From Allolobophora icterica (lineage: Eukaryota; Annelida; Clitellata; Crassiclitellata; Lumbricidae): a stretch of 64,000 bases of DNA. The translations under genes were made by a program, and so were the position numbers. The stretch spans positions 19,634,982 to 19,698,981 of the forward strand of contig OY744604.1 of the NCBI GenBank assembly GCA_963556255.1. The letters run 5' to 3'. Below are positions 5,648 to 24,004 of the stretch, in pieces. How positions within the stretch are numbered: position 1 is the stretch's first letter; every line of letters starts with the position of its first letter. A model generated the notes under the pieces. The model made no database searches and had not been told where the DNA came from. It was given only the letters and a program-made list of their open reading frames with translations.

Positions 5648-5670
5648 ATTGTCATCAAAATCATCACTAG

Positions 5671-5902
5671 TAGATGAGAAGTAAGAGTGGTGACACAGTC
5701 GCTAGGTGGAGTTCTAAAAGCTTAAAAACTCTTACAATGAGTGAATCTGAAACCCCAACCTGTTGGCGCTCTAAGGGCCTGATAGAGGAAAGGAACGGTC
5801 ATTCAGGGTAAATAGGAGTGCATGGGCTAACACAGTGCGCTACAGAAGCCCGGAGCTGGAGAAGACTCCCTTGGCCCTATAGAAGTCCAGAGTTTGGGCG
5901 CA
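5671..5902 (+). repeat. Left copy of a ~230-bp inverted repeat flanking the Polinton
   Basis: Nearly identical, in inverse orientation, to 23544-23776. Shared landmarks include GGAGCTGGAGAAGACTCCC and CCTTGGCCCTATAGAAGT. After 5903 it runs into CAATCAAT-type repeats (to about 5970, again at 6050-6075), which look like a retroposon tail. It is therefore more likely a SINE or LINE end than part of the Polinton. Confidence 0.75.
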
Positions 5903-6143
5903 ACAATCAATTTATCAATCAATTAGTCAATCAATCATCAATCGACCATAATAGTCACACATTCAATCAATCGGCCAATCGAATTCTCTACAACAATATA
6001 CTCAGAAGCTCTGCGTATTTCCTCTGGCACCATGTCAGGTTTTTAAAAACAGTCAATCAATTGGTCAATCGAAATTTATATAGCACCCACCCCAGGGACA
6101 AAAAATAGGATCGTGGATTGCCTTAACACATCAAACCGCAAAA

Positions 6144-6180
6144 GTGTCGTTTGCTGCCGGCCGAGAACCTCCCACGAGGC
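6144..6180 (+). repeat. Left terminal inverted repeat of the Polinton (37 bp, imperfect)
   Basis: It shares the 18-bp core CGTTTGCTGCCGGCCGAG (6148-6165) with the complement of 21003-21020, then a second matching block CCTCCCACG. It marks the left edge of the coding block. Polintons usually have longer terminal repeats, so the true ends may be trimmed. I see no convincing 6-bp target duplication. Confidence 0.7.
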
Positions 6181-6290
6181 CGGCCCAAACCATTGGAGTG
6201 TGCCAGTAAAAATTATAGCCCACTAATCGTACGGGGGTGGTGCGCTAGGAATTACAGACTCACTACTCCAACCACCTACGATGAAAACTT

Positions 6291-6896
6291 TTATTTTGAG
6301 GTTCGTGGGCAAGACCCAGCGCTGGTTAGTTTCTTGATTAGTTCTGCCACCACCTGGTCTTTGCTTTGACTCGGCAACTCTTTTTTTCCATTCTTGCTTT
6401 GTATATCACGTTTCATCGTTCTATATTTCTCCTCCTCTCCCAGAATAAGTTTATATTCATCGTCGCTTATAGCTGTGTCTTCTAACGCCCGAGAAATATG
6501 GTCATGAACTGTGTTTAGCTTACTTTCCGCCAAAATACAAATTTCGTCGTGTTTTGAAGCTTTAGCAACAAACGATCGGCTAACAACATTTCCAATAATA
6601 TCCAGAAAACTCGTCGCTATGGCCAAACTCTCCAGAACAATACCAGGAATAAAACCAATACCAGTGGCTAACATAGCTGCCCCACCCACCCCAGTTCCAA
6701 GACTAACTATAGCAAGGCCGGCCGAGGCCCCATTAGCCACATCTACAACCCTCTTATACTTCTTGCATAGTTGTCCCCGACTTATCGCCTCGGACCTCAG
6801 GAATGCTTCTATTTCGCCGATCTTCTGCAGACGAAATGTTTGCGACGTCGTGTCTGACGAAATTGTTGACTCCATAAGCGGTGGGTACAAAGACAT
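6291..6896 (-). CDS. Unknown Polinton protein with a hydrophobic Gly/Ala-rich core
   Basis: It is 201 residues from ATG at 6896. Residues about 50-105 are a long Gly/Ala/Val/Ile-rich stretch (GTGVGGAAMLATGIGF and ESLAIATSFLDIIG), consistent with one or two membrane-spanning or membrane-active helices. The C-terminal half is charged and helical, probably coiled coil (EDTAISDDEYKLILGEEEKY). I recognise no family. It is the last gene of the leftward block. Its start follows CTATAAAAAAAACT, where the stop of the upstream gene (6905) sits inside the TATA-like box. A membrane-active virion or exit function is possible, inferred only from composition. Confidence 0.5.
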   Translation of the reverse strand: MSLYPPLMESTISSDTTSQTFRLQKIGEIEAFLRSEAISRGQLCKKYKRVVDVANGASAGLAIVSLGTGVGGAAMLATGIGFIPGIVLESLAIATSFLDIIGNVVSRSFVAKASKHDEICILAESKLNTVHDHISRALEDTAISDDEYKLILGEEEKYRTMKRDIQSKNGKKELPSQSKDQVVAELIKKLTSAGSCPRTSK

Positions 6897-6904
6897 AGTT
6901 TTTT

Positions 6905-7459
6905 TTATAGTTGCTCTATCAGTAACGTTACGTTTAACTCAATAGTTGAAGTACTTAAAACGCCTCTCTTTTTTCCTTCAATTCGAAAACTCGTTTGTCC
7001 TGGAATGTATATTGCCCTAGCTGCATCAAATTGTCCACTTGAAATGTCGACTGTACGATCGATACTACCACCAGCAGCTGCCGGTGCTATAACGCGAACT
7101 GTTGCATCACCACCGCAAACACCAAAGACTGTTAGCTTCCAGAACCCGCACTCTAACGAAACCCCCTCATTGGTGGTTTGCAAACTTATACACGGAAAAC
7201 GCGCAGCGGTCAATGGAAGAGTTTGCCACGCACTGGTGGTTACCGTTCCAGCCGCCGTATAGATATCGCGGCTGTGGTAATCGTCCGACACGAAGTCGAT
7301 GTGCTGTTGAGGCACCGCGGTCAATAGCTCTGCGGTGGGCTTCGGGATGTCGTACCCCCAGTGGCCTACATCACCTAGACTGTCTATGCTGTATTTACAC
7401 ATGTCTATTTCTCCGTGTTGACGGAGATACCCCCGAATCTTGTAGTGCGTGTCAGACAT
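6905..7459 (-). CDS. Unknown Polinton protein, predicted beta-rich
   Basis: It is 184 residues from ATG at 7459. Residues about 75-184 alternate hydrophobic and polar residues with many Thr, Ser, Gly and Val (ECGFWKLTVFGVCGGDATVRV; SSTIELNVTLLI-like end), the look of a beta-sandwich such as a knob or TNF-like fold. I cannot assign a family. It is directly downstream of the fibre gene, with 5 bp between the fibre stop and this ATG. A role in the same surface structure is a reasonable inference. The fibre stop overlaps a CAGTAGTATAGAAAAA box ahead of this start, also seen before the polymerase gene. Confidence 0.5.
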   Translation of the reverse strand: MSDTHYKIRGYLRQHGEIDMCKYSIDSLGDVGHWGYDIPKPTAELLTAVPQQHIDFVSDDYHSRDIYTAAGTVTTSAWQTLPLTAARFPCISLQTTNEGVSLECGFWKLTVFGVCGGDATVRVIAPAAAGGSIDRTVDISSGQFDAARAIYIPGQTSFRIEGKKRGVLSTSTIELNVTLLIEQL

Positions 7460-7461
7460 AT

Positions 7462-7479
7462 TTTTCTATACTACTGACT
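7462..7479 (-). promoter_or_regulatory. TATA-like box before the 184-residue gene
   Basis: The minus strand reads CAGTAGTATAGAAAAA just ahead of ATG 7459. AGTAGTATARAA is shared with the region ahead of the polymerase gene (20512-20526). Similar ACTATAAAAA or ACTATAAT boxes precede the genes at 6896 and 11879. Promoter function is inferred from position and repetition. Confidence 0.4.
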
Positions 7480-9634
7480 GTCCCCCATGTCTAAAATATG
7501 TATAGATCTGGAAGTGGGATATTCCAAAAGTACCTTGTGTTGGGCTGGTGGCCGAGACTACCAGCTTGAATTTTTTGAATACTGTGTCATCAGTGAAGGT
7601 GAACTCTTCTGCAGAATTAGTCAATGTGACAGTGGAGGAAATGAGAGGACTGCGTGTCATTCCTACTTCAGGAGCGGTGAGTGGAATCCCATGGAATGAC
7701 CAAGACGTGATACGTGGTGCAGTAGGACTAGATCCCCCAGCCAGACTAACCTTCCATACTCGCACAGGCGTCGGGCATTCAATCTGTAACCAAGTCCCCG
7801 CCAGCCATTCTCTCGAAGTGGACGCTGTCTTCCACTCACCTCTCACACCCGAGTTGAATGCCATATGAGGCGGGTTAGTGGGTAAAGATTCGTTGGCTGA
7901 GGCAATAAAACCCGTTTCGGAAACGTTTCTGGATAGGGGCGGAATATGGCCGCTGTAGTTGAGAATCTTGATGTCCGTCGCGTATCGCCTTTCATTAGCT
8001 ATCTCACTGTCTACATACCGCTTGTTAGTCAAGTACCATGGTCCCGAGGGCGGTGTATCATTATTCGTAGTGGCGATGGTGATCAGCCGCGTCACTTGTT
8101 TAAAACTCACAGCGTCGCTATCGGATCCTGAAATTTCTGTTGGGAGCCCAGTCACTCTTTTACCACCCATAGCCAGATCACCGGTCATGGTACTGCCGGA
8201 TTTAAACACGCATGCGCTCCTAACGATAACATCTTGCTCGTTGGCGTACCTCTTAGCAGCTTCAGCTTTCTGGTCCGCATAGAGTCTAACAGAAGCCCCA
8301 ATCTCTGCGTTTTTCACGTCAACGTATCGTTTATTTGTCACATGCAACGGTTCTGTTGGTACTCTATCACTCTTTGTCATGTTGTCGGCGATCAGCTTCG
8401 ATACTTGTGCCATACTCGCCGCGTCGCTTTCGGACGTTGCTGCGCTCGTAGGGAGCCCAGTAACTCTATTACCACCCATGGTTAAATCACCCGTCATTGC
8501 GTCGCCAGCTTTAAGCACGCATGCGCTCCTAACGATAACATCTTGCTCGTTGGCGTACCTCTTAGCAGCTTCAGCTTTCTGGTCCGCATAGAGTCTAACG
8601 GAAGCTCCAATCTCAGCGTTTTTCGCGTCCACATACCGTGTGTTAGTCAAGTACTTTGGTCCAGCCGGCGCCGTATCATTATTCTTAGTGGCGTTACTGA
8701 TCAGCTGCGTCACCTGTTTCAAACTCGCGGCGTCGCTATCGGATCCTGGAATTTCTGTTGGCAGCCCAGTCACTCTTTTGCCACCCATGGTCAAATCACC
8801 AGTCATAGAATCGCCGCTTTTGAGCACATGCCCGCCTCTTACGATAGCATGCTTCTCGTCCACATATCTTCTAGCGGTGGTGACCTTCTCATCCACGTAC
8901 TGTCTGTAAGAAGCGTCGCGGGAATCTACATACCGCTTATTCACCACATGCAACGACTCCGTGGGTACTCTATCGAGTTTTACTAGAGCGCCAGCGACCG
9001 CTGTTGACACTTGTTTCCAACTCGCTGCGTCGCTATCGGATCCTGAAATTTCTGTTGGGAGCCCAGTAACTCGGTGGCCACCCATAACTAAACTTCCAGT
9101 CATTACGCCGCCGGATTTGAGCACGCACGCATTCCTGACGATAACATCTTGCTCATTGACATAACTTTTAACAATAAGGTCCTTGTCATCTGCATACCGC
9201 CTAACGGAATCTCTCAGCCCCGCATTCTTCTCGTCCGTGTACTGCCTGGCATCGATAAGCTTTTGGTCTGCATGATTTTCGGCTGCGGTCGCCTTCTGGT
9301 CCGCGTATCGTACCACTTGTGCCCAGCTCGCAGCGTCGCTTTCAGACGCACCAGCGTCTGTGGGCAGCCCAGTAACTTTGTGACCACCCATTTTTAGAAC
9401 ACCAGACATCGTTCCACCGGTGATTTGTAGGTTGTCCTGATCTACGATGTCTGCATAAGCCTTTGTTGCGGCGTCTGTGTCCATCGTAGGAGTCCCCACA
9501 TTTGTCAGCCGAAATCCCCCAGCCGAAAGAATTCCCAGCATGGTATCACCAGCCTTGTGGATGAGCCCAGCGGCGCTTATCTGCCCTCCTCCCACCCCAC
9601 CTCCACCGTCTCTTCCAAATTTATCAACCGGCAT
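7466..9634 (-). CDS. Phage-like repeat fibre protein with discoidin-like C-terminus
   Basis: It is 722 residues from ATG at 9634. After a Gly-rich start (residues 8-17), six modules share the pattern G-x-x-M-x-G-x-L-x-M-G-G-x-x-V-T-G-L-P...D-A-A-S. They start near residues 29, 73, 175, 274, 385 and 496. They are separated by heptad-like helices rich in RYADQK, YVDEK and YVNEQDVIVR, probably trimeric coiled coil. The motif with DAA..YVD is known from tail fibres of phages and fibre-type proteins of large algal viruses. Residues about 560-722 look like a galactose-binding or discoidin beta-sandwich (TWLQIECPTPVRVWKVSLAG; FKKFKLVVSATS). The likely role is a host-binding spike. A decayed relative lies at 38638-39181. 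The repeats have high DNA identity, so unequal recombination is expected. Confidence 0.72.
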   Translation of the reverse strand: MPVDKFGRDGGGGVGGGQISAAGLIHKAGDTMLGILSAGGFRLTNVGTPTMDTDAATKAYADIVDQDNLQITGGTMSGVLKMGGHKVTGLPTDAGASESDAASWAQVVRYADQKATAAENHADQKLIDARQYTDEKNAGLRDSVRRYADDKDLIVKSYVNEQDVIVRNACVLKSGGVMTGSLVMGGHRVTGLPTEISGSDSDAASWKQVSTAVAGALVKLDRVPTESLHVVNKRYVDSRDASYRQYVDEKVTTARRYVDEKHAIVRGGHVLKSGDSMTGDLTMGGKRVTGLPTEIPGSDSDAASLKQVTQLISNATKNNDTAPAGPKYLTNTRYVDAKNAEIGASVRLYADQKAEAAKRYANEQDVIVRSACVLKAGDAMTGDLTMGGNRVTGLPTSAATSESDAASMAQVSKLIADNMTKSDRVPTEPLHVTNKRYVDVKNAEIGASVRLYADQKAEAAKRYANEQDVIVRSACVFKSGSTMTGDLAMGGKRVTGLPTEISGSDSDAVSFKQVTRLITIATTNNDTPPSGPWYLTNKRYVDSEIANERRYATDIKILNYSGHIPPLSRNVSETGFIASANESLPTNPPHMAFNSGVRGEWKTASTSREWLAGTWLQIECPTPVRVWKVSLAGGSSPTAPRITSWSFHGIPLTAPEVGMTRSPLISSTVTLTNSAEEFTFTDDTVFKKFKLVVSATSPTQGTFGISHFQIYTYFRHGGQSVV

Positions 9635-9664
9635 TTTTTTTTATATAAAAAGGATGGTGGAAGT
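9635..9664 (-). promoter_or_regulatory. Short AT-rich spacer with TATA-like TTTTTATATAAAA
   Basis: The 30-bp gap between protease stop and fibre ATG reads CCTTTTTATATAAAAAAAA on the minus strand, a plausible TATA element for the fibre gene. Assignment is by position only. Confidence 0.35.
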
Positions 9665-10039
9665 CTAACATAGGTCAAGCACGATGTCTTCAAAATTCTT
9701 TCCAGCAGCGAGCTCTCTTAGCACGGTCAGGCAGAGATGACCACATACCACATCATCGGGCCCCTGTAGCTGGAACGTCTGTGTTCTTATAGGATTTTTT
9801 AAATATCGAGAAATTTCGAGAGGCGGATCCAGCCCATAACTGTCAAAATAGACGGCTGTAGGTCCATCTATCCAATAGGCGACCCAGTGAGTACCATCGC
9901 CGGAACCGGAATCTAAATTAACAACTCCACACTCCTTCTCACGAGCCACGGCGGGCAGACCATCTCGCATGAAAACACCGCGGAAATGCGGCAGACCTCG
10001 GGCAACTTTCTCTATATCGAAGTTGCTAAGAGGTTTTAG
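9665..10039 (-). CDS. PRO: Adenain-type cysteine protease (maturation protease), probably made by -1 frameshifting
   Basis: It belongs to the Ulp1/adenain fold and would mature virion proteins. Numbered from the first Met (codon at 9970), the triad is His28 (GTHWVAYW), Asp43 (YFDSYG) and Cys76 (VVCGH), with the oxyanion Gln69. That 101-residue product would lack the N-terminal helix of this family. The frame is open for 23 more codons upstream (to 10039, beginning LKPLSNFDIEKVARG, then HFRGVF). They fit the family's N-terminus but contain no ATG. The frame joins the upstream pX-like ORF exactly at a slippery A AAA AAC by a -1 shift. I therefore annotate the coding part from 10039; the Met at 9970 is a fallback start. 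It is followed 30 bp later by the fibre gene. Confidence 0.88.
   Translation of the reverse strand, partial: LKPLSNFDIEKVARGLPHFRGVFMRDGLPAVAREKECGVVNLDSGSGDGTHWVAYWIDGPTAVYFDSYGLDPPLEISRYLKNPIRTQTFQLQGPDDVVCGHLCLTVLRELAAGKNFEDIVLDLC
9996..10033 (-). promoter_or_regulatory. Stem-loop downstream of the frameshift site
   Basis: On the minus-strand RNA, CCTC (10030-10033) pairs with GAGG (9996-9999), and GCAACTT (10020-10026) pairs with AAGTTGC (10002-10008). The 7-bp inner stem is perfect with an 11-nt loop. The two stems are separated by a small internal loop (TTA/CC). The structure begins 5 nt after the slippery heptamer, within the usual spacing for a -1 frameshift stimulator. No pseudoknot partner was identified. 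Confidence 0.75.
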
Positions 10040-10527
10040 TTTTTTTGTCCGATGTAGAGACCCGATCCTTTACACATTGGACAACAACCACCACGAGTCT
10101 GGCGCCCGAGATATAAACCGGACCCCCGCGCCTCGAGTGCGCGATTGTGACGCTCCGCCTCCGCCTGTGCGGCGTCGTTGGCCTGTTTGTTGTGCACGGC
10201 CTCTGTCACCCCAGCGGCAATACCACCCGCCGCGGATAACCCACCAAAAAGCAGTGGGAGGAGAGCCAGTAGTGGAAGAAATCCGCCCGATTTTGTCATC
10301 TTTTTCAATTGTGTTTTGGTGAATCTCAGCTCCATGCCAACGCCTTCCGAAATCTTCCTCACGATTCGGGCGGCTTGAACTTTTGTCAGCGCGAGCTTAT
10401 CGTCTCCACGAAGCTGGCCATGAGTGAGCCGGATCGTGGCGCCAGTGCCATCGCGCGCAGCTTTAGCCAATGTTGCCTTTTGCCCTTCGGTCAGCGAAAG
10501 GCCGAACGCAACGTATTCAGTTTTCAT
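10036..10527 (-). CDS. pX-like core/minor virion protein, frameshift donor for the protease
   Basis: It is 163 residues from ATG at 10527. The N-terminal half has three short lysine-rich repeats of a helix that prepares DNA or membrane binding (SLTEGQKATLAKAARDG; RLTHGQLRGDDKLALTKVQ; RFTKTQLKKMTKSG). Then comes a hydrophobic Gly/Leu stretch near residues 81-105 (GGFLPLLALLPLLFGGLSAA). The tail has two GSGLYLG/GSGLYIG repeats flanking a CCPMC cluster. This layout (repeated T-x-x-Q helix words, then a membrane-like Gly-rich segment) matches proteins of Polintons and adintoviruses compared with adenovirus pX. The function is inferred. It ends on the slippery heptamer before TAA, so a fraction of translation should continue into the protease. 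Confidence 0.65.
   Translation of the reverse strand: MKTEYVAFGLSLTEGQKATLAKAARDGTGATIRLTHGQLRGDDKLALTKVQAARIVRKISEGVGMELRFTKTQLKKMTKSGGFLPLLALLPLLFGGLSAAGGIAAGVTEAVHNKQANDAAQAEAERHNRALEARGSGLYLGRQTRGGCCPMCKGSGLYIGQKN
10039..10045 (-). promoter_or_regulatory. -1 frameshift slippery heptamer A AAA AAC
   Basis: In the pX-like reading frame the codons are CAA AAA AAC TAA, so the heptamer is in the correct X XXY YYZ phase and the stop follows at once. A one-base backward slip reads CTA AAA CCT, the protease frame. The same heptamer type is used by known gag-pro frameshift sites. Confidence 0.8.
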
Positions 10528-10583
10528 TTTTGGAAAAAATATATCTAAAAGAGGGCCTTGTATCTAAATGTGAAAAACGATTT

Positions 10584-11879
10584 CTAGTAAACGACGTTGA
10601 ATTTGCTGCCATCCGATTCAAAATTCAGGAGTCGGTCGCTGATCAGGACGGCATATGCTGTCGTATTATTTGGTACCCCTTCGTTAAAGTCCACCTTGAT
10701 TTGTATGTCCTGTACAGAGGTTTTAAGTCGTTCAGATTGCCTCCGCACGTCCAGAACGAAGATCGGAAACAAATCTACAAATTCGATTGGTGTCAGTTGG
10801 CATGACGATTCACGCGCGTCTATGCCGCAATATTCTTCCTTGAAGTCACGTAGGGCCTTGTAAGCGCGAGAGGTTGTCCTCTTGGTGAAGTCGAGATTCA
10901 TGTCAACAACCGGGTAGCGATCGCTGTTGAGCATAGCGAAAATGTTGCGAACCTGCACATGGTCAAACAGTGCCGGATTCTGGCCTTGATGTGCATTCTT
11001 TCCAGTTTGAAAAGCAACAAGAATCCAGCGTGGCTTTTCCGTGCCCGACTTAACACTCAAACGCCAGGAAAAAGTCGTCGCTCGTGGCACCGCAATGTTG
11101 TCGCATTGCATGGCGCGGAATGCTACAGGTACCTTAACCTTGGCTTCAATCTGCTTCATAAGCATGCTTTTATACTCCAAAGCGGGTATTATATGCGGCA
11201 TGAACCAGGAGAGTTTAGTCAGCGTGATCTGGCCATTGACCGCAGCGGCTTCCTTGAAGATCGCGTCTGCATCCCCCTGCCGGCTCAGCAGTAAGGAGTG
11301 TTTAATCCCGTATACGACCTTGTGATAATCATCGCAAAAGCCGAATAGATGTCTTAAGGGAACGATGAATGAAAACGTTCCAATAGGGACGGGTTTTCCA
11401 ATGATCATCAGTCGACGGGCCTCGAAGCCGATATTCGCGGTCGCCGCCGCCGCACTCGTGTCCTTCTGCCAACACATGTTTAAACCTTCAGCTCTGGAGA
11501 AGTCGTCGCCGTAAACCAGCATGCCTTTCATCGTCGTGGCTTGCCCAGGTGACATGACATTCTCTATCTCGGTGTTGTTAGCCAGGTATCGAATCTGAGA
11601 AAACATGTACGGGACGGCGTTGTTGATGAATGACACCAACGTGTCTGCGATGTAAGCGGCGCCAGTTGTTGTAAGCCTGCCCTCCACAAGAAGGTAACTC
11701 TTAGAAGGCTGCGTGAAAATGTCTTGGTTCTGGATGTCTATCTGTATGGCCTGGCCATTGTTGATAGCCGCGGGATTTTGTGACTCATACTCGCGGTATT
11801 CAAACGATTCGATGCTATTGTCATCGGGCACCGCCGAAGCGATGTCCAACATTTCACTCGGCACGTCAAATGCCGCCAT
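10584..11879 (-). CDS. MCP: Major capsid protein, double jelly-roll (hexon-like)
   Basis: It is 431 residues from ATG at 11879. It matches the family of Polinton/adintovirus double jelly-roll capsid proteins. The recognisable sequence signatures are FTQPSKSYLLVEGRLT near residue 60, PGQATTMKGMLVYGDDFSRA near 120, TFSFIVPLRHLFGFCDDYHKVVYG near 175 and SDRLLNFESDGSKFNVVY at the C-terminus. In the virion this protein would form the trimeric capsomers. It lies between the pVI-like and pX-like genes, 56 bp upstream of the latter. Its start follows a minus-strand AACTATAATA box. The frame is intact. Family recognition is by remembered signature rather than by a search. Confidence 0.85.
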   Translation of the reverse strand: MAAFDVPSEMLDIASAVPDDNSIESFEYREYESQNPAAINNGQAIQIDIQNQDIFTQPSKSYLLVEGRLTTTGAAYIADTLVSFINNAVPYMFSQIRYLANNTEIENVMSPGQATTMKGMLVYGDDFSRAEGLNMCWQKDTSAAAATANIGFEARRLMIIGKPVPIGTFSFIVPLRHLFGFCDDYHKVVYGIKHSLLLSRQGDADAIFKEAAAVNGQITLTKLSWFMPHIIPALEYKSMLMKQIEAKVKVPVAFRAMQCDNIAVPRATTFSWRLSVKSGTEKPRWILVAFQTGKNAHQGQNPALFDHVQVRNIFAMLNSDRYPVVDMNLDFTKRTTSRAYKALRDFKEEYCGIDARESSCQLTPIEFVDLFPIFVLDVRRQSERLKTSVQDIQIKVDFNEGVPNNTTAYAVLISDRLLNFESDGSKFNVVY

Positions 11880-11990
11880 TATTATAGTTAAAAAAGTTCA
11901 AGCTTCAATTATTAATCATGTTGCAAATTAATTTCATATGTGGTGGGTTAAACATTTTTTTCCGTTTTGTGAATTAGTCGGAAATTTTTT
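11880..11990 (-). promoter_or_regulatory. Intergenic region ahead of the capsid gene
   Basis: This 111-bp AT-rich gap, the longest inside the structural block, contains TTTTTTAACTATAATAATGG on the minus strand, with a TATA-like core next to the capsid ATG. It is a likely promoter region for a highly expressed gene; this is inference from position. Confidence 0.35.
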
Positions 11991-12449
11991 TCATTTTGCA
12001 AGAAACAGACCCCTACCACAACGACTCGGCTTTATAGTCTTGAAACCGGATCCAGCAATGCGGCTGTTTATGTCAGCCATTGCCGGAACAACTGATGGCG
12101 GACTCACAGCCAGTTGTTTTAAGTATTCGATGCTCTTGTCGCTGAGCGCCTTCTCCAAAGGTGCGGGAACAACGGGCGCGGCAGATGAATTTTCATTTCG
12201 TAAATGAGCTTCATTTACGGCCGCAGCGCGTCTCGCTTTCACGGCATCGACGATCTGCCTGACGGCGGAGGCTGTTGTGGCGCCGGCTTTCGCGACATTA
12301 CCAACCGCCTTGGCAACGTTTGTGATTGTGCCTCTATTCGCCGAAATGAAGGAGCCTGCACGGCCAAGGAAACCCGCGATTTTGGGTATCCAGTCGAAAA
12401 GTCCACCACCCACGACACGACGCCGCTTTTTAATTCCAAGAACAAACAT
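11991..12449 (-). CDS. pVI-like minor virion protein
   Basis: I choose the ATG at 12449 (152 residues); the reading frame upstream to 12479 has only a GTG. Basic residues at the start (GIKKRRR) are followed by VVGGG and an amphipathic helix (LFDWIPKIAGFLGRAGSFI). Next are Ala-rich helices (residues 45-85) and a C-terminal stretch with RIAGSGFKTIK and a basic end. IAGS|G fits the adenain consensus (M/I/L)-x-G-x-G. GG before the amphipathic helix is close to the second consensus, so a protease-processed, membrane-lytic pVI-like protein is suggested. It lies 22 bp after the penton gene and before the capsid gene. The alternative is an unrelated basic protein. Confidence 0.6.
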   Translation of the reverse strand: MFVLGIKKRRRVVGGGLFDWIPKIAGFLGRAGSFISANRGTITNVAKAVGNVAKAGATTASAVRQIVDAVKARRAAAVNEAHLRNENSSAAPVVPAPLEKALSDKSIEYLKQLAVSPPSVVPAMADINSRIAGSGFKTIKPSRCGRGLFLAK

Positions 12450-12471
12450 GAGAATATTTAAGTGTGAAAAT

Positions 12472-13263
12472 CTACGCACTGCGGATGTGAAACCTTATAG
12501 TTACTGTCTCACCGCGGAGGTTTAATTGTTCACCATTCTGGTCGGTCAGCCACACACGAATGCCCTGTACGTTGCCAGCCGGTGCTACTGGTAGGTACAC
12601 TAGATTTTTCGGAGACTCGATTACCTTGTAGCCGGGCGACACATCCGGGAAAAAACTGTAGATTACTGGCAGCTGGCTACCATTTCGATACGATCCAGAG
12701 ATAATATCACAATTTACCAGGATTGTGTCCACGCGGAGAATATCGACTGGATTTTCTCCCTCTTTATAACCACTACCAAGCCTCTGAGGGTTAAAACCGA
12801 GCATTTGCCTGATGGTAGATTGAGCCATATTTACCTTATATAGGGCATTCGTAATTTTTATGAAGGCGCGTAGGGTAGATGCGTTAGCTCCTATGGTAAT
12901 AGGAGAATTAAAGCCGAGTGGTGCCACACCCGTCGGAGAATTTTGCTTTTCTAACTGCCTACCGATTTCATCATTAATCTGTGCGATCTCGTAGCTTCCG
13001 TCGGGCAAAATGATCGTCTTCCACGTCACACCATTGTCGGTGCTGTAGACGAACTTGTTATTTGTACTATCGATGTTGGGAATCGAATTATAAGTTTCAA
13101 GATTGACCAAAGCAAGCTCAAAGCGTCTTTTTGGATCCAGGTACAGCGGTGGTGAGAAAGCCGTGGTCCACCCTGTAGTATCTGAGGAAACAACTATACT
13201 AAAATTTTCCTTAGGCTGTAAAAGTTCTCTAATTTCTTCGAGCAGTTTCTCCGAGCGTTCCAT
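12472..13263 (-). CDS. Minor capsid protein (penton-like)
   Basis: It is 263 residues from ATG at 13263. It starts with a short coiled-coil-like helix (residues 1-16, MERSEKLLEEIRELLQ). A beta-rich body follows, carrying RFELALVNLETYNSIPNI and DNGVTWKTIILPDGSYEI. This is the signature of the Polinton minor capsid family with a single jelly roll that occupies the fivefold vertices. The region YGFNPQRL-like (MLGFNPQRLGSGY) and the C-terminal VTIRFHIRSA are also typical. The order split structural gene, penton, pVI-like, capsid is tight (10 bp before this start). The frame is intact. The assignment uses remembered family features, not a search. Confidence 0.75.
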   Translation of the reverse strand: MERSEKLLEEIRELLQPKENFSIVVSSDTTGWTTAFSPPLYLDPKRRFELALVNLETYNSIPNIDSTNNKFVYSTDNGVTWKTIILPDGSYEIAQINDEIGRQLEKQNSPTGVAPLGFNSPITIGANASTLRAFIKITNALYKVNMAQSTIRQMLGFNPQRLGSGYKEGENPVDILRVDTILVNCDIISGSYRNGSQLPVIYSFFPDVSPGYKVIESPKNLVYLPVAPAGNVQGIRVWLTDQNGEQLNLRGETVTIRFHIRSA

Positions 13264-13273
13264 CTTGTGTGCT

Positions 13274-13831
13274 TTATTTTATGAGCATGTTTCTATTCAA
13301 TTCGAGTGCCAGCTCTTTGGAGATCGCACCGGAACGCAGTAACTCGTCAAGAATGGCGGAGATTTCGTTGTCAAGACCAGTGTTTCCCGCGGCCCTAGAG
13401 GCCACCAAAAGCTGTAACCTCTCTACCAGGGCGTTTGGGTCGTTATAAAATTGCACCGCGCCGCCACGAATCAGCTGGAACTTTTTACTTTTCCGGCCAT
13501 GAATAGGCAGACCAGACATCTGTACGAGCTTTTTGAAAGTTTCAATTGCCTGAGGCGAATATTGCTTAGTCTTAACGAAGCGTTTCGTTAACAGGCTGAA
13601 CAATGACTCATCGGCAGGAGCTTCGAGCACGAGGTTCCCACCTTTAAACACTCTTAGTCTACCAGCAGACAGCGCGACGGGGTCGACGGAGAGCTCACCC
13701 AAGGCGCTACCTTGTAATTTAAGAGGAACGGCTGGGACACTGAAAGCCTTTCCCTTTTTGATGAGGCTGTGGCCCGCTAGCAGTGTATGGATTCGCTTTT
13801 TATATTCCCTTAGGGCTTTCGATATCTGCAG
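13274..13831 (-). pseudogene. C-terminal half of a split structural gene (no ATG)
   Basis: The frame is open from 13831 to the stop at 13274 (185 codons) but has no ATG. The first codon resembling a start is TTG at 13702. It begins KALREYKKRIHTLLAG. It ends with a helical domain containing YNDPNALVERLQLLVASRA, AGNTGLDNEISAILDELLRS and ELNRNMLIK. In related Polinton elements a domain like this follows the N-terminal domain encoded at 13800-14378 in one protein. The two frames overlap by 32 nt and differ by +1. Either a frameshift mutation broke the gene, or a +1 programmed shift joins them. Function is unknown, presumably virion structure or assembly. Confidence 0.5.
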
Positions 13832-14378: not shown

Positions 14379-14418
14379 CGTGATTGTATGTCGGCTATAT
14401 GTTGCCTATATCGTGTCT

Positions 14419-15105
14419 TTAAATACTTACCTTGGGCTTATAGAAGCGATCGAACCCGCAACGATATTTTCCGTCGTACACCTTTGACGTTAAATCTATG
14501 ACTGCAAATCCATATGGCTGGGCAGCACACTCGCTGAAGAACGTACGGAACTCATCGAAAGACATGTCGCCGCCCACGAACGTATCGTGAATGGCTCGCA
14601 AATTTTTGCTGTCTTGGTTGAAGAGGACGATAAGATTAGCATTGTCACGGATCGCTTGCTTCGGAATTCGAAAATAATTCTGCGTTAAGTAGAAGCAGTC
14701 CGCGCCACCGTGTCGACCCATAGTGAAATACCTTTCGATGGGCGACTGTTTTTCAAGCATGACGTCATCGAACACTAGAAGGCTTCTGGCATTCTTATTT
14801 AATGATTCAACTGGAACTATTTCATCTGAGCAAGAGTGAAAGGAAGCCACTTCCTTCCCGGCAACTTTTTCGAGTTCTGTTATCCAGTCCCGAAGAAACT
14901 GATATTTTTCCTGTCCCAGAGACTTTGAGTATAGATAGAGCCGGTCAAAACGTAGGTACCCCTTCTTCAGAAGGAGGTTGAGTAGTAGGTTTGTTTTTCC
15001 ACATCCGCTAGGCCCACAGATTATGCATCGTATGCTTGATGGCAACAACCAATGGTGGTGTTTTTTCCCATCGTCGGCTTCGAGGTCAAAATTTGTTATT
15101 TCCAT
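14419..15105 (-). CDS. ATP: Packaging ATPase, FtsK/HerA type (A32-like)
   Basis: It is 228 residues. I choose ATG at 15105 (MEITNFDLE). The frame extends to 15252, but that part has no similarity to the family and overlaps the divergent gene. Walker A is CGPSGCGKTNLLL (residues 30-42). Walker B is SLLVFDDVMLEK (about residue 107-118). A motif GRHGGADCFYLTQNYFRIPK follows with the sensor Gln. The protein would pump DNA into the capsid. It is shorter than cellular FtsK, typical of virus packaging ATPases. It starts 38 bp from the divergent PLA2-like gene, so the two share one small promoter region. Confidence 0.9.
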   Translation of the reverse strand: MEITNFDLEADDGKKHHHWLLPSSIRCIICGPSGCGKTNLLLNLLLKKGYLRFDRLYLYSKSLGQEKYQFLRDWITELEKVAGKEVASFHSCSDEIVPVESLNKNARSLLVFDDVMLEKQSPIERYFTMGRHGGADCFYLTQNYFRIPKQAIRDNANLIVLFNQDSKNLRAIHDTFVGGDMSFDEFRTFFSECAAQPYGFAVIDLTSKVYDGKYRCGFDRFYKPKVSI

Positions 15106-15143
15106 ATAGAGACAACGAGTTATGATTGTATTCAACGAACACA
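15106..15143. promoter_or_regulatory. 38-bp divergent promoter region
   Basis: The spacer lies between the ATPase (minus) and PLA2-like (plus) start codons. It contains ATATAGAGACAACGAG at the ATPase side. With so little room, core promoter elements must overlap or lie within the genes. Function inferred from position. Confidence 0.4.
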
Positions 15144-15710
15144 ATGTATTGCCTACGATGTAAGAAACATACTGAGACTTCAAATGAAACAATCGTCGAG
15201 TTACGAAACGGTCGGCCAGCCAAGAAGGGAACCTGTGCCGTCTGCGGTGCAAAGAAGAGCCAAATTTTGCCTTCTAAAGTGCGAAAGACTGGAGGTTCTC
15301 TACTGAATAGGGCCCTCAACGCTCTACCTCTGCCTGAGATGCATATGAGCCTTCCATCCGGTATGTCTTCGGAAGATAATCCGGGAGGTTCTTTTCAGAA
15401 CACGGGAAAGTACTCTTACTGTGGACCATTCACAAAACTCGATAAACGGCTGTCACAGCGATATCTCGGTGTTAATCAGCTCGACCGTGCGTGCCTCCAC
15501 CACGATGTGGCTTACGCAGTTCATAAAGATACTCCGGGGCGTAACCACGCAGATGACATCCTCGCTGCAGCCGCGTCGAAGATCGCACTCACCGATGAAA
15601 CTCCGGATTATGAGAAGAAAGATGCCCGGCTCGTATCGGCCATTATGTCAGCGAAGTCGAGGCTGGGGATGGGTTTTGGAATAAAAGGACGGCAGGGAAA
15701 ATGTAAATGA
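15144..15710 (+). CDS. PLA2-like virion protein with N-terminal zinc ribbon
   Basis: It is 188 residues from ATG at 15144; an in-frame TTG at 15126 is not needed. A zinc ribbon is formed by C3-C6 (YCLRCKK) and C31-C34 (TCAVCGAKKS). Residues about 85-160 carry a phospholipase A2-like core: a Gly-containing calcium-loop-like segment (YCGPFTKLD) and a His-Asp catalytic pair in CLHHDVAYAVH (His120-Asp121). This resembles the domain used by parvoviruses to breach endosomes and found in adinto-/Polinton-like elements. The C-terminus is Gly/Lys rich (GMGFGIKGRQGKCK). It is the first plus-strand gene, followed by the integrase 49 bp later. A membrane-lipid cleavage role in entry is inferred, as other key residues cannot be checked by eye. 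Confidence 0.75.
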   Translation: MYCLRCKKHTETSNETIVELRNGRPAKKGTCAVCGAKKSQILPSKVRKTGGSLLNRALNALPLPEMHMSLPSGMSSEDNPGGSFQNTGKYSYCGPFTKLDKRLSQRYLGVNQLDRACLHHDVAYAVHKDTPGRNHADDILAAAASKIALTDETPDYEKKDARLVSAIMSAKSRLGMGFGIKGRQGKCK

Positions 15711-15759: not shown

Positions 15760-16773
15760 ATGTCTAAGCACCTTTCAGCCGTCTATTACAGCCCTAAAGG
15801 TTACTGGCGAGGCAAGGCTGCAGTGAAAAAACTAGCCTCAGCCGCCAAAGTTTCCGAGGCGGAGGCTCGTGATTGGTTGAAGAAACAAGTGGTGTGGCAG
15901 ATTTATTTACCCGTTCCACGCCGCATACCGCGTCCAAAGTTCGAGGAAAATCGCCCAAACGCCGTACACCAAGCCGATCTCTTGTTTTTACCTCACGATA
16001 AAGTAGGTCGAAAGACTTATAAATACGCTCTCACTGTTGTTGATGTTGCTTCACGATACAAAGAAGCTGAACCGTTGATCAACAAAAGTGCGACCGAAGT
16101 CGCCGCCGCTCTAAGCCGGATCTACAAGAGGGGTCCATTGACTTGGCCTCGACTCTTTCAGGTCGACCCTGGCCGCGAATTTATGGGTGATTTTACACCG
16201 TTGCTGGCGAAGCACGACGTTCTTGTAAGACGCGGACAGGCCGGAAATCATCGCCAACAGGGCATCGTTGAACGCTTTAACCGTACTCTAGCTGAGCGAC
16301 TTTTCGGTGCCCAGTACGCTCAGGAATTGCTTCTGGCTGCAAGGGGGTCATCCGAACGGTCAGTGGAATGGGTTCGACGATTGCCCGAAGTTGTAGCTGC
16401 ACTAAACGATGAGCCGACGCGCTTGCTCGACATGAAGCCGGTTGAAGCGATGAAAGCTGCTAAAGTGACACAGAAGCCCTCTCATTCACAAATGAAAACT
16501 CGTTTGTGGGGCTTGGATGAGCCTGTTCTCGGGCACGACGTTCTCGTCCGATATTTGTACGCTCCCGGCGAGCTCGAAGGTGGAAGCAAACGTGCCACCG
16601 ATCCTAACTGGTCGCTCACCATCCACGCTATTTTGGATGTTGTTCGGCAGGCTGGCCAACCGGCTTTATACCATCTGGTAGACGGTCCTGCCCGCGGGTT
16701 TGTACGTGAGGAGCTGCTTCTGGTTCCTATGGGCACTGAGCTACCACCCGATAGAATACTCAACCGTCGTTGA
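15760..16773 (+). CDS. INT: Retrovirus-like DDE integrase
   Basis: It is 337 residues from ATG at 15760. The integrase core has Asp73 (HQADLLFLP), Asp136 (RLFQVDPGREF) and Glu171 (GIVERFNRT), with 34 residues between the last two acids, matching the DDE arrangement of Polinton and retroviral integrases. The N-terminal helical part (residues 1-50) lacks an obvious HHCC zinc finger. The C-terminal region (residues 250-330) is a small beta-type domain ending in RGFVREELLLVP. It would insert the element's DNA into the host genome. It runs tail to tail with the polymerase gene, overlapping its 3' end by 14 bp. The frame is intact. Confidence 0.95.
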   Translation: MSKHLSAVYYSPKGYWRGKAAVKKLASAAKVSEAEARDWLKKQVVWQIYLPVPRRIPRPKFEENRPNAVHQADLLFLPHDKVGRKTYKYALTVVDVASRYKEAEPLINKSATEVAAALSRIYKRGPLTWPRLFQVDPGREFMGDFTPLLAKHDVLVRRGQAGNHRQQGIVERFNRTLAERLFGAQYAQELLLAARGSSERSVEWVRRLPEVVAALNDEPTRLLDMKPVEAMKAAKVTQKPSHSQMKTRLWGLDEPVLGHDVLVRYLYAPGELEGGSKRATDPNWSLTIHAILDVVRQAGQPALYHLVDGPARGFVREELLLVPMGTELPPDRILNRR

Positions 16774-19700
16774 TTTTGTAGTGCCCGTATGCCAGCGTTG
16801 TTATCCCATCGGCCTCTATCCACTTTTTTGTGTCTAATGGAGAGAGGCTGATCTTATTCTGCTCGTACACTCCGATCTGGTGGTCGTGGCTTCGAATCAC
16901 GACTTGTGTGTGCCGCATCTCTTCTCGTTCGAACAGGCACTCCTTGTATAGCTCGTGATGCAGATCCTTCTTCACAACTGCTCTCTGAACGCCTTTAGCT
17001 TTCCTGATCTCTGAACCGCCCGATTTTAAGATCGAGTACATCTTCGGACGCAGTCCCACGAATTCGGCGATGGCCAATCCGTTACATTCATCCTTGAACT
17101 TGCCCACGACTTTCTTGTTCTCGACGTCGTAGTATGGGCTGTCTCTAGAAAACTCACTAAAGTCGTATGAGTGTTTTTTGTTCCACATATCGGCATAGGC
17201 GTTCGGAGTTTCCACCTGAAATAACAGGCTGTCAGTGTCTGTGTATAAGAGTTGGGCATTGTTGCCGTACTCGTTTTTCACATCGTTGTACCAGAAGTCG
17301 TACATCAGATGCTTGCTGAGGTCGAGGACAGCCTGGCCGACATATGCAGGTCTGTTTAACTTGAGCTTGTTCTTCAAACTGTGAATCGCGGCGAGTTGGT
17401 CGTTGAAGATTTTGTGTGATATGTAGGCCGGGTCAGCAATTAGTTTACGAAGTTTGTCAACTTTTGAGGTCGGTACCAGGTTAACTCTGATTCTTTTTCT
17501 AAGATTTTCCATGGTCTTTCCAAAGACCGCATTATTAGCCAGTTTGAAGAAATCCTTCTCAAACTCCGACGTTGCCTTCGCTCTCAATTTCGTATTCATC
17601 TCGATGTATGGAGCCATCCATGCCTCCTGTCTAAACTTAATGACACGATGAATTTTAGAAACTCGTAGCCCTAACGAGTGGTAGAGTTTGAGATTTCTAT
17701 AATGGACCACATACCGCTCCTTAGGTCGTAGGCTTGGTACTAACTTCACATGCTTTGTGAACTTGCCTCCCAACTCGTTCATAAGCACATTCTGATAGTC
17801 ACTCAACCACTCCTCTTGGACTGTCAGGGTCTCCGGTGCTAAGGGATAGTCGCTATGTGATTCGTGGAGGTGCTCCGGGTACCCGAGATCGACTTCAAGT
17901 AGGAAGCCTTCAGGCGCGTCATCTGGAGTTTCCAACACTTCGTCGAGAGTAGGACTTTCCCAGCTAAATCCTCCAACTGGTAGTGGCTGTTGCATCGCCC
18001 AGCCGTAAAGATTATTCGCGTCGAGGTACATGATCCAGTTGTCTGGCTTCGTGGTATCGTAGTCGGGGCATTGCGGGTTGTTGGCTTTTGCGAAGCGCTT
18101 AGATACCATCGAGATTCCACCTCGGAGACCTTTCTCTACGAACAAATGCATATCTATATCGGTTAAAAGTTCGAGCTCGATCTTCGTCTTTTTCAACAAT
18201 GCGTCCCAGGCCATTCCTGGTAGGCTAAAGTAGTTTGCTGGATCTAGACTGTAGTGCTTCATCGATGTGTCTCTGAAGGTCTCGAAGACATCTGCGAGTA
18301 GAAGTACATCCGTGCGGAGATACAGGTCGTGATAGTCGCCCAGAGTTTTACAGTCGAATTCGTTCCATACTCGTTGGGCCTGTTGATAATCCTCATCTGA
18401 AATGTTCTCTCGGGACAGCCTGCTGTAGAACGCTTCTTTGGGTGGAAGTCGGTCTTCTTCGAAGCGGTTGTAATCGTCAATGTGCTCGTAACAATATACG
18501 CCCTTTCGCCTCAATAGATCTAGTTTTGTCCTATCATTGTGAACGAAATTTTCCTTTATATATGCCGTTGTGACTTTCAGATCCTCAAGCGACAGATTTC
18601 CTGATAATTTATCCAACGAGCTGTTTAGAAACTGGAGGCTGTCGATGAACTGTAGTTGCCCAATGTTAAATGTCATGTATTTCTCCATATTGTTTGGAAT
18701 GCAGTTAATTTCGGTTTTTTCATCCTGTGCGGCTTCACAGCCTCCGATCGCTTGCATGATGAGATGGCTGTCGTAGCCTCGCAGATTGTGGAAGACCACT
18801 GGTACCTTACACTTATCTGGATATATTCTAAGTTTTAAGTTACACTCGCTGTGAGCGGCACCTCGGTACTTACCAGTAATGTGACAGTGGTCGCGAACTC
18901 TATCCGCTTCGAGTGCATTTCCGCAGATGTGACATTCGATAGCTTCGCGGAATGATTGGCGATCGGCCGCTGACATAACCATCTTAGCTGGGGTGGCCAG
19001 CCTTTGTTTGATAGAGTCCAGCTCGCCTTGTATTCGTTGTAGGAATTGTTGAACGGCGTTCTCTCCACGATATAGCACCGGCTTCTTGGTGCGGCCATCG
19101 TATCGAACCACTATATAACAGAAGCTACACGGTTTCTGCTCAGCTATCTGTCTGGTGTTGCTCTCGCTGGGGTTCATGACTGCACCTTCGATTGGTATGT
19201 TTAGAGCCTCGAAGTCTGCGTAAATGATATACGGAATGCGCATCTGTTTGTGGTGATTCTGGAATTTGAGGATATTTTCATCCTCTTTTGGCATCTCAAT
19301 CCGCTGAGGCTTCTCACTGATGCCCTGACAATCTTTGATATGGGCATCCAGTAAGTCTTGTCTACAGAATATGTGTAGGCAGCGACGACATGGATGTTTC
19401 CTGTTGTTGTCTTTACTATTTTTATGAAGAATTCGACCAAGGTCTTTAATCCAGACGTAGTGGTAATTCTCGCCACTGACTAACAGTAGAAGATCGATAT
19501 TATAGTCTCTATTGGTCTGCTTTGATACACAGATTGGAAATAACCCTTCATTCCATCCGAAGACCGATACGGACACAATAGGGTTCTGACGCTCGAACTT
19601 ACCGATATCTGTAACCTTAACTGGAAATTCTATACCATCGAAGTTTAGCTCCTGGAGGTGGGCACGATACTTAGTTGGGCGTTGAGGGTTCTTTTCTACT

Positions 19701-20500
19701 GGATACATGGCGCTTAGTATGGCCCACTCAAAGCAACGATTGTCTTCATTCTTTACATTAACGACTGAATGATAGGGAATATACTTCGGTGTTGGAAAAT
19801 AGCTCTTGCCTCGGAAAGGCTTATATCTTGCAAAACTGAGGTTTAGCGCCACGACCCGCCTCGCCCTCCACCCCGACCCCTCATTGGTATAATCCTCGAG
19901 GTGTTTCAGTATTTCAGCCTTGGCCTTCCGAATAGCTCCTTGGATTTTACCCGCATTGGTAATTGGTACTGCTGTGCTTCGAAAGTAGGCGGTATTGGTA
20001 ATGACGCCGGGGGGCGCGTTGCCACCATACACATTGTCAAGGGTCGGTGCCAACTTTTCCAACTCAACAGTCAACACTTGAGTGTATTTCAAACCGCCAT
20101 TTTTCAAGAGCTCTTCGTTTAGCTGTGCCTCGATGTTCTGCTCCATTGCACTCAAGAAAGCCAACGCATCTCCTTCTAGCCTGTGGTTAAGAGGTACTTC
20201 TGCCCGTAAGTCTCTCAGATGCTGGTTGGCGAGCTCTTTGTGCACTAGAAAGGGTGGTGGTCCACCTCTATCCTGCATAATTAGGAGTGGGTCGAATTCT
20301 GCCAGAATGGATTTACGTTTTGCCCCTCTGCGCTTGCGCACTGGAGGAATTGGCCTTGGAAGCAGTGGCTGTAGTAAGCGCCTTTTGACTGCATGTGGTA
20401 TGGGTTCGTCTAAGATATTCTGTAGAACTGCTCGAAGAGCTGGGGGGCCAGTAAACTCAACCAACAATTGTTCAATTTTTTCATTCGTAGACAATGCCAT
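16760..20500 (-). CDS. POLB: Protein-primed family B DNA polymerase
   Basis: It is 1246 residues from ATG at 20500, one uninterrupted frame. Exonuclease motifs: I at residues 428-432 (YADFEAL), II at about 570-577 (FHNLRGYD), III at 728-739 (YLRTDVLLLADV). Polymerase motifs: A at 825-834 (YLDANNLYGW), B at 986-998 (KLANNAVFGKTME), C at 1086-1092 (YTDTDSL). There are also a C-x2-C...H...C finger at about 371-391 (CRRCLHIFCRQ) and a C-H-C cluster at 523-554 (CHICGN...HCHITGKYRG). The inserts between motifs are characteristic of protein-primed enzymes, which start replication from the element ends. The N-terminal ~400 residues probably hold the terminal-protein region. The start follows a CAGTAGTATAAAAC box. 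Confidence 0.97.
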   Translation of the reverse strand: MALSTNEKIEQLLVEFTGPPALRAVLQNILDEPIPHAVKRRLLQPLLPRPIPPVRKRRGAKRKSILAEFDPLLIMQDRGGPPPFLVHKELANQHLRDLRAEVPLNHRLEGDALAFLSAMEQNIEAQLNEELLKNGGLKYTQVLTVELEKLAPTLDNVYGGNAPPGVITNTAYFRSTAVPITNAGKIQGAIRKAKAEILKHLEDYTNEGSGWRARRVVALNLSFARYKPFRGKSYFPTPKYIPYHSVVNVKNEDNRCFEWAILSAMYPVEKNPQRPTKYRAHLQELNFDGIEFPVKVTDIGKFERQNPIVSVSVFGWNEGLFPICVSKQTNRDYNIDLLLLVSGENYHYVWIKDLGRILHKNSKDNNRKHPCRRCLHIFCRQDLLDAHIKDCQGISEKPQRIEMPKEDENILKFQNHHKQMRIPYIIYADFEALNIPIEGAVMNPSESNTRQIAEQKPCSFCYIVVRYDGRTKKPVLYRGENAVQQFLQRIQGELDSIKQRLATPAKMVMSAADRQSFREAIECHICGNALEADRVRDHCHITGKYRGAAHSECNLKLRIYPDKCKVPVVFHNLRGYDSHLIMQAIGGCEAAQDEKTEINCIPNNMEKYMTFNIGQLQFIDSLQFLNSSLDKLSGNLSLEDLKVTTAYIKENFVHNDRTKLDLLRRKGVYCYEHIDDYNRFEEDRLPPKEAFYSRLSRENISDEDYQQAQRVWNEFDCKTLGDYHDLYLRTDVLLLADVFETFRDTSMKHYSLDPANYFSLPGMAWDALLKKTKIELELLTDIDMHLFVEKGLRGGISMVSKRFAKANNPQCPDYDTTKPDNWIMYLDANNLYGWAMQQPLPVGGFSWESPTLDEVLETPDDAPEGFLLEVDLGYPEHLHESHSDYPLAPETLTVQEEWLSDYQNVLMNELGGKFTKHVKLVPSLRPKERYVVHYRNLKLYHSLGLRVSKIHRVIKFRQEAWMAPYIEMNTKLRAKATSEFEKDFFKLANNAVFGKTMENLRKRIRVNLVPTSKVDKLRKLIADPAYISHKIFNDQLAAIHSLKNKLKLNRPAYVGQAVLDLSKHLMYDFWYNDVKNEYGNNAQLLYTDTDSLLFQVETPNAYADMWNKKHSYDFSEFSRDSPYYDVENKKVVGKFKDECNGLAIAEFVGLRPKMYSILKSGGSEIRKAKGVQRAVVKKDLHHELYKECLFEREEMRHTQVVIRSHDHQIGVYEQNKISLSPLDTKKWIEADGITTLAYGHYKINDG

Positions 20501-20511
20501 AATTATAAATT

Positions 20512-22896: not shown

Positions 22897-22900
22897 AACA

Positions 22901-23543: not shown

Positions 23544-23776
23544 TGCGCCCAAAGCCCTGAACTTCTATAGGGCCAAGGGAGTCTTCTCCAGCTCCGGGCT
23601 TCTGTAGCGCACTGTGTTAGCCCATGCACTCCTATTTACCCTGAATGACCGTTCCTTTCCTCTATCAGGCCCTTAGAGCGCCAACAGGTTGGGGTTTCAG
23701 ATTCACTCATTGTAAGAGTTTTTAAGCTTTTAGAACTCCACCTAGCGACTGTGTCACCACTCTTACTTCTCATCTA
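23544..23776 (-). repeat. Right copy of the ~230-bp inverted repeat
   Basis: Complement of 5671-5902. The two copies enclose about 18 kb, including the Polinton. They may be two unrelated insertions of one retroposon in opposite directions. Confidence 0.75.
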
Positions 23777-24004
23777 CTTCACTATCAGTATCGTGCCCCT
23801 CTCAGGAACGTTGCCGTTTCCACGACTGTGCCAATGAACTGTTCCTCCATACAGTCTTGAGTATTTTGTAGCCAATAATTTGGCTGAAGATCCGCCTCCA
23901 TCATTTAAGTACATAAATATTATGTGCATTGGTCTGTTCTAAAACGTTGTTGGCCAGAAATATAGGCTCGGAGTGCTCTAGAGTGGGCCTGCCTGCCATC
24001 GCAC
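23777..24004. other. Unassigned spacer
   Basis: Nothing recognised between the inverted repeat and the LINE tail. Confidence 0.5.

What the first reader, a model, noticed from the sequence alone, without database searches (positions are those of the whole stretch)
9996..10045. Canonical -1 ribosomal frameshift signal joining a pX-like protein to the adenain protease in a Polinton
All parts are present in order on the minus strand: an in-phase A AAA AAC heptamer, an immediate 0-frame TAA, a 5-nt spacer, then a stem-loop (CCTC/GAGG and GCAACTT/AAGTTGC). The -1 frame gives 23 ATG-less codons that fit the protease N-terminal helix. This mirrors gag-pro of retroviruses and would deliver the protease into the particle at low stoichiometry as a fusion. 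I do not know of this being described for Polintons.
Basis: partly seen in the sequence, partly recalled or inferred. Interest (0 to 1): 0.88.

Follow-up and report, generated by a model that had tools for sequence, protein, structure and literature searches.

The report
Polinton protease likely made by frameshifting
In this virus-like transposon the gene for the capsid-type protease has no start codon of its own and follows, one reading frame back, a slippery A AAA AAC sequence at the end of a core-protein gene that 157 of 158 examined sister copies keep, so the protease is likely made only as an occasional ribosomal-frameshift fusion, much as retroviruses make theirs.

Summary
In detail: on the minus strand the pX-like ORF (10527-10036) ends CAA AAA AAC TAA, and the adenain-like protease lies in the -1 frame with no ATG for its first 23 codons. 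The genome holds a large family of this element. In 158 other copies the heptamer is kept in 157 and the TAA in 158. In 135 of them the ATG-less codons change almost only synonymously in the -1 frame (11 synonymous, 3 not), but not in the other frames, so they are translated. Protein pairs from three metagenome contigs force the same junction, and it stands in the DNA of a distant viral contig (protease 41% identical). A second Polinton family in the same genome has an ATG-started protease, PolB instead of pX upstream, and no heptamer.

A 2024 preprint already suggested Hexon-Adenain frameshift fusions in adintoviruses; the pX partner and the evolutionary evidence look new. No frameshifting has been measured.

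The parts
10036..10527 (-). pX-like core protein ORF (0 frame, 163 aa), ending GSGLYIGQKN-stop
   Evidence: Adeno_PX below the cut-off (E 0.0015), but a homolog (P0185) passes it with 33.9 bits
10039..10045 (-). slippery heptamer A AAA AAC, in phase with pX
   Evidence: kept in 157 of 158 other copies
10036..10038 (-). 0-frame TAA directly after the heptamer
   Evidence: TAA in 158 of 158 other copies
9665..10039 (-). adenain-like protease in the -1 frame, from CTA to TAG (124 aa)
   Evidence: adenovirus proteinase match by profile (1avp E 1.1e-4) and by fold (1nln E 1.3e-6)
9971..10039 (-). 23 ATG-less protease codons (N-terminal helix and most of the first strand)
   Evidence: 11 synonymous and 3 nonsynonymous distinct changes in the -1 frame; 4 and 12, and 0 and 16, in the other two frames; predicted helix 16-23 and strand 29-34 of P0001
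9968..9970 (-). first in-frame ATG of the protease frame (internal Met)
   Evidence: ATG in 158 of 158 other copies
10070..10072 (-). TAA that closes the -1 frame upstream
9995..10034 (-). stem-loop of this copy, 4-5 nt after the heptamer; not conserved
10584..11879 (-). major capsid protein (double jelly roll)
   Evidence: PF21738 E 2.8e-56
7466..9634 (-). 722-aa repetitive fibre-like protein with its own ATG
   Evidence: function inferred from the repeats, no Pfam family above cut-off
14419..15252 (-). packaging ATPase
   Evidence: Pox_A32 E 4.3e-8
15760..16773 (+). rve integrase
   Evidence: PF00665 E 2.3e-10
16760..20500 (-). type B DNA polymerase
   Evidence: DNA_pol_B_2 E 1.4e-21
5669..5898 (.). 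left terminal inverted repeat
   Evidence: 230-nt arms, 98% complementary
23549..23778 (.). right terminal inverted repeat; both outer flanks read TCACT, a 5-bp target duplication read by eye

Best explanation
The Polinton protease is likely made only as a C-terminal extension of the pX-like core protein, by a -1 ribosomal frameshift at the conserved A AAA AAC that stands directly before the pX stop codon. Shown: the in-phase heptamer, the adjacent stop, the ATG-less protease frame, the conservation of these across copies of the family and (by DNA or by forced back-translation) in a few other lineages, and protein-level selection on the ATG-less codons. Inferred: most ribosomes stop at TAA and make pX; a minority re-pair on A AAA AAA, read CTA next (junction ...GQKN-LKPLSNFD) and make a pX-protease fusion. 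Inferred further: the fusion enters the particle through its pX part, in low number, and the protease is later freed or works as a fusion during maturation, as Gag-Pro does in retroviruses. Which element stimulates the shift is not known.
For: (1) 157 of 158 other copies keep AAAAAAC and 158 of 158 the TAA, at a mean pairwise divergence of 8.0% in the 500 nt around it (1500 sampled pairs). (2) In 135 copies the 23 ATG-less codons show 11 synonymous and 3 nonsynonymous distinct changes in the -1 frame (per-site ratio 0.089); the same DNA gives 4 and 12 (0.98) and 0 and 16 in the other frames; the last 90 codons of pX give 0.287 in frame 0 and 1.47 in frame -1. (3) The three synonymous third positions of the heptamer codons are unchanged in all 158 copies, whereas 62 of 97 such sites in the 100 codons before it changed at least once (chance about 0.05). 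(5) 11 of 40 protease N-extensions fit an out-of-frame GxGL[YF]..KN upstream; shuffled extensions fit at 0-5% per row; the 11 are all among the 17 rows that I had labelled slip-type, none among the other 23. (6) A distant viral contig, L001, has the same heptamer, a weakly pX-like neighbour and an ATG-less -1 protease in its DNA. (7) Helix 16-23 and strand 29-34, at or before the internal Met, are predicted with confidence (mean pLDDT 90.5). (8) A second family in the genome, with PolB upstream instead of pX, has an ATG-started protease.
Against: No measurement of frameshifting. The stem-loop is not conserved and no convincing pseudoknot was found, so the stimulator is unexplained. Of the 17 slip-type database rows, 13 begin with a reported Met upstream of the KK codons, inside the pX reading (4 begin with V or L); gene callers demand a start and some sources print GTG or TTG as M, but separate initiation there is possible in those relatives. 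The window family has no such ATG. The A-run of L001 is 11 bases long, so a length error there cannot be excluded. In 3 of 158 copies an insertion within 10 nt before the heptamer changes the frame (L120, L148, L154); L177, L178 and L180 also carry one extra base and read pX and protease as one ORF. Copies were taken from the best protein matches, so intact ones are over-represented.
Confidence: 0.86

Rival explanations
1. The protease is started separately, at a non-AUG codon or by re-initiation after the pX stop.
For: Separate starts could serve relatives with an ATG at the junction, such as the 'MPLSNFDIE' rows (P0021, P0023, P0027, P0033, P0036, P0037), and perhaps the 13 slip-type rows with a reported Met upstream.
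Against: No ATG lies in the -1 frame before the internal Met in 157 of 158 copies of the window family; the exception, L174, has one inside the helix. The Leu codon near the N-terminus varies (CTT, CTG, CTC, TTG), so no near-cognate start there is kept. Of nine other ORFs of the element checked, eight start with ATG; the ninth is listed from TTG, and the pVI-like ORF from GTG.
Confidence: 0.05
2. Splicing joins an upstream exon with an ATG to the protease frame.
For: A weak acceptor-like CCTCTTAG overlaps the AGC-encoded Ser (by eye); adenoviruses splice late mRNAs (general knowledge).
Against: It leaves the kept heptamer, the adjacent stop and the KK codons of other lineages unexplained. Transcripts were not available.
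Confidence: 0.04
3. Transcriptional slippage on the A-run inserts a base, so that part of the mRNA encodes a fusion.
For: The run is 7 A in the window and 11 A in L001; a few genomic copies already carry one extra base and a fused ORF.
Against: In pair P0126/P0009 the run is forced to six A, short for polymerase slippage (general knowledge).
Confidence: 0.04
4. The missing ATG is decay of one inactive copy.
For: 96% of Maverick loci in vertebrates are reported as eroded (PMC8097293, passages).
Against: The arrangement is shared by the 158 other copies read, under purifying selection (135 tested), and by other lineages.
Confidence: 0.01

Closest known systems
Retroviral gag-pro -1 frameshift (MMTV, A AAA AAC; recalled)
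   Same: Same heptamer; protease in the -1 frame without its own start; upstream partner a structural protein
   Different: Here a double-stranded DNA element, a cysteine protease of the adenain kind and a pX-like partner; the 0-frame stop follows the heptamer directly; no conserved stem or pseudoknot found
Hexon-Adenain ('Hexain') fusions suggested for adintoviruses (PMC11071296, section 16 read whole)
   Same: A predicted -1 shift that yields an adenain fusion in an adenovirus/Polinton relative
   Different: There the partner is Hexon and the main text gives one sentence, resting on KnotInFrame predictions; here a separate pX ORF lies between capsid gene and protease, with conservation and codon evidence
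Adenovirus proteinase (adenain) with pVI/pX precursors
   Same: Fold and catalytic residues of the protease; pX-like neighbour
   Different: As recalled, the adenovirus protease has its own ATG and binds a peptide of pVI; no frameshift fusion

Membership tests
-1 programmed ribosomal frameshift site | X XXY YYZ heptamer in phase with the upstream frame | tested here: met
   heptamer in 157 of 158 copies, phase changed by an insertion in 3 of 158; L001
-1 programmed ribosomal frameshift site | downstream ORF open in the -1 frame across the heptamer, without its own start | tested here: met
-1 programmed ribosomal frameshift site | both frames under protein selection | tested here: met
-1 programmed ribosomal frameshift site | stimulatory RNA structure 5-9 nt downstream | tested here: inconclusive
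   stem-loop in this copy but not conserved; no convincing pseudoknot
-1 programmed ribosomal frameshift site | measured frameshifting | not testable with these tools
   no reporter, ribosome or peptide data
Polinton/Maverick | PolB, rve integrase, ATPase, double jelly-roll capsid protein and inverted repeats | tested here: met
Adenain (Peptidase C5) fold | adenovirus proteinase fold with His, acid, Gln and Cys | tested here: met
   H61, D76, Q102, C109 invariant in 60 rows, aligned to the adenovirus enzyme; Foldseek best hit 1nln. Pfam gave no family for the window protein
Adintovirus 'Hexain' arrangement | Hexon directly upstream and shifted into adenain | tested here: not met
   the upstream ORF is pX-like; the capsid gene ends 56 nt before pX

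The most novel reading that the evidence does not exclude
Polintons load their maturation protease as retroviruses do: a slippery heptamer at the end of a pX-type core-protein gene makes a minority core-protease fusion that carries the enzyme into the capsid at low dose. The device is old in this part of the Polinton/adenovirus-like world, and lineages in which the protease lies elsewhere have an ATG instead.
Probability: 0.6. Interest if true: 0.85.

Novelty: new variant of a known kind. Interest (0 to 1): 0.77.

Why it matters
Gag-pro-type frameshifting is a textbook device of retroviruses (general knowledge); here a double-stranded DNA, adenovirus-like element appears to have reached the same answer to the same problem, dosing and delivering a capsid protease. 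It gives a testable account of how Polintons, whose particles had not been observed according to PMC8097293 (2021; start of the abstract in the listing), would control maturation. It also warns annotators that ATG-seeking gene callers cut off the first part of this protease: 13 of the 120 listed homologs begin at the internal Met.

Tried and rejected
Scans for more junction DNA: protease, pX and junction queries in viral contigs gave one usable relative contig, L001 (again as L003, L005, L006, L175), and a weak one, L002 (residues 17-55, E 5e-4), which I did not read; the pattern hit L004 did not look like a protease. Genome contigs gave no relative, phages none. Rfam gave no hit in 1-26000. 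Stem-loop as a conserved stimulator: rejected. Pseudoknot: one weak 5-bp candidate within 120 nt. Searches of the own genome with other protease types returned, as far as I read them, the window family, apart from L176 and L179. Four more protein pairs with matching contig length and source (P0129/P0020, P0140/P0031, P0144/P0019, P0145/P0034) could not be tested jointly, because the protease row starts too late; P0019 starts MKKVPL, perhaps its own ATG. A pattern count over the whole genome, free of protein-match bias, did not complete.

Rows dropped: L007 (the window) and duplicates L016 and L021, and seven repeat places among L145-L174. A first script misaligned several loci and stopped with an error at L032; redone. 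The tree used 97 of the 121 protease rows (120 of 138 hits were listed), with labels set by eye. One search tried 49 pX C-termini against 58 protease rows.

Full report
WHAT IS THERE. The window holds a Polinton of about 18.1 kb (5669-23778) with 230-nt inverted repeats, 98% complementary, and TCACT at both flanks (read by eye). It encodes a double jelly-roll capsid protein, packaging ATPase, integrase and type B polymerase. On the minus strand the order is capsid protein, 56 nt, pX-like ORF, protease, fibre-like ORF. The pX-like ORF ends CAA AAA AAC TAA. The protease lies in the -1 frame, opens after a TAA at 10072, and has no ATG until 9970.

THE PROTEASE. The window protein has no Pfam hit. 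A profile of it and 23 relatives matches adenovirus proteinase (E 1.1e-4), and its predicted fold (mean pLDDT 90.5) has adenovirus proteinase as best match (1nln, E 1.3e-6, TM-score 0.62 on the query). Helix 16-23 and strand 29-34 lie at or before the internal Met (residue 34 of P0001), so a product started there would lack conserved structure. In the 24-row alignment D18, R30, G31 and F33, all upstream of that Met, are invariant.

COPIES IN THE SAME GENOME. The genome (G000, 1.118 Gb) gave 1643 first-look candidates, of which 150 were scored. I read the junction of 158 other copies. AAAAAAC is kept in 157 (L026 has AAAATAC), TAA in 158, and 157 have no ATG in the -1 frame before the internal Met. 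In 135 of them the ATG-less 23 codons show 11 synonymous and 3 nonsynonymous distinct changes in the -1 frame (per-site ratio 0.089); read in the other two frames the same DNA gives 4 and 12 (ratio 0.98) and 0 and 16. The last 90 codons of pX give 0.287 in frame 0 and 1.47 in frame -1. Of 187 insertions in pX, counted per copy, 183 are multiples of three (105 copies). The three synonymous third positions inside the heptamer are unchanged in all 158, as are 35 of 97 such positions in the 100 codons upstream, which gives a chance of about 0.05. These copies were taken from the best protein matches, so decayed ones are under-represented.

OTHER LINEAGES. Database proteins came without DNA, but pX C-termini (frame 0) and protease N-extensions (frame -1) constrain it jointly. 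Thirteen of the combinations tried fit. Three are pairs with matching contig length and source and force A AAA AAY TAG. The other ten combine proteins that need not share a contig, or are the window itself; two of these (P0160 and P0169, each with P0018) give the heptamer followed by one more codon and then TAA. Among 51 near pX relatives, 23 end in KN, 6 in KN plus one residue, 2 in KK, 2 in KKR and 18 otherwise (several look truncated); among 69 far ones, 1 ends in KN. Of 40 protease rows with at least 10 residues before the PLSN motif, 11 fit an out-of-frame GxGL[YF]..KN, including two that are only 44-45% identical to the window (P0107, P0121); shuffles fit at 0-5% per row. In the tree the window falls in a 35-row clade (support 95/93) with 14 slip-type, 12 internal-Met, 7 other and 2 ATG rows; another clade has six ATG rows ('MPLSNFDIE') and one slip-type row; labels were set by eye and many forks are weak. 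Of the 17 slip-type database rows 13 begin with a reported Met in the pX-overlapping stretch and 4 with V or L, so separate initiation is not excluded for them. At DNA level, viral contig L001 (protease 41% identical) has A AAA AAC in phase in a pX-like ORF, with the protease in the -1 frame and no ATG until the same internal Met. Its pX kinship is weak (E 0.00035, probability 37%), and its A-run of 11 invites caution.

THE COUNTER-EXAMPLES. A second family in the same genome (L176, L179; L182) has a protease 43% identical to the window's with its own ATG. In L182 it lies directly behind a polymerase 45% identical to the window's PolB, and no such heptamer stands in the stretch before it. I read this as the expected contrast: without an upstream pX the gene needs a start codon. 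A few copies of the window family carry one extra base in or near the A-run; L177, L178 and L180 then read pX and protease as one ORF, and L154 carries an extra base too. They are natural run-length variants or assembly errors.

THE STEM-LOOP. Across 158 copies the outer arm forms in 17 and the inner in 115, with no two-sided change; 49 of 1000 synonymous recodings are as stable. One weak 5-bp pseudoknot pairing was seen within 120 nt. A further hairpin (CCGC/GCGG) about 47 nt downstream is kept in 154 of 158, but it lies too far for a usual stimulator (general knowledge).

MECHANISM. I take -1 frameshifting at A AAA AAC as the most likely route to the protease. Particle delivery, dosage and later release are inferred by analogy with Gag-Pro. 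The pX C-terminus carries two GxGLY motifs and cysteines, and the pVI-like ORF (so named by eye) a GxGLF motif. Whether such tails act like the adenovirus pVI cofactor is a guess.

PRIOR WORK. PMC11071296 (passages; [quoted passage not shown] The listings showed nothing else that I recognised as describing a Polinton protease frameshift; most listed papers were not opened. The passages seen in PMC8097293, PMC10120064, PMC8363768 and PMC4028283 do not describe one. The adintovirus founding paper (recalled DOI) was not held.

Noticed in passing
G000 (whole genome): This Polinton family is very abundant: 1588-1643 first-look candidates per protease search in a 1.1-Gb genome, with the 150 scored at 96-100% protein identity to the window's protease.
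   Followed up: partly
L177, L178, L180 and L154 (copies of the window family): An extra base in or near the A-run; in L177, L178 and L180 pX and protease then read as one continuous ORF. Natural variants or assembly errors.
   Followed up: partly
L182:1312-1746: A second Polinton family in the same genome has an ATG-started protease directly downstream of PolB.
   Followed up: partly
window 7466-9634: The 722-aa ORF after the protease holds four DNA repeats of about 288 nt (MGGxxVTGLP repeats); an 836-aa ORF with similar-looking repeats lies downstream of the protease in L001 (5182-7692).
   Followed up: no
window 10036-10527 and 11991-12479: The pX-like and pVI-like proteins share a C-terminal GxGL[YF][LI] motif near cysteines, a candidate for a protease cofactor or cleavage signal.
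   Followed up: no
window 15126-15710 (+): ORF with a DUF5679 domain and a phospholipase A2-like domain (PF08398, E 2.5e-9).
   Followed up: no
window 5669-23778, minus strand: Several ORFs start with ATG after an A/T-rich, in places TATA-like stretch, as if each had its own promoter; the internal Met of the protease has no such stretch.
   Followed up: partly
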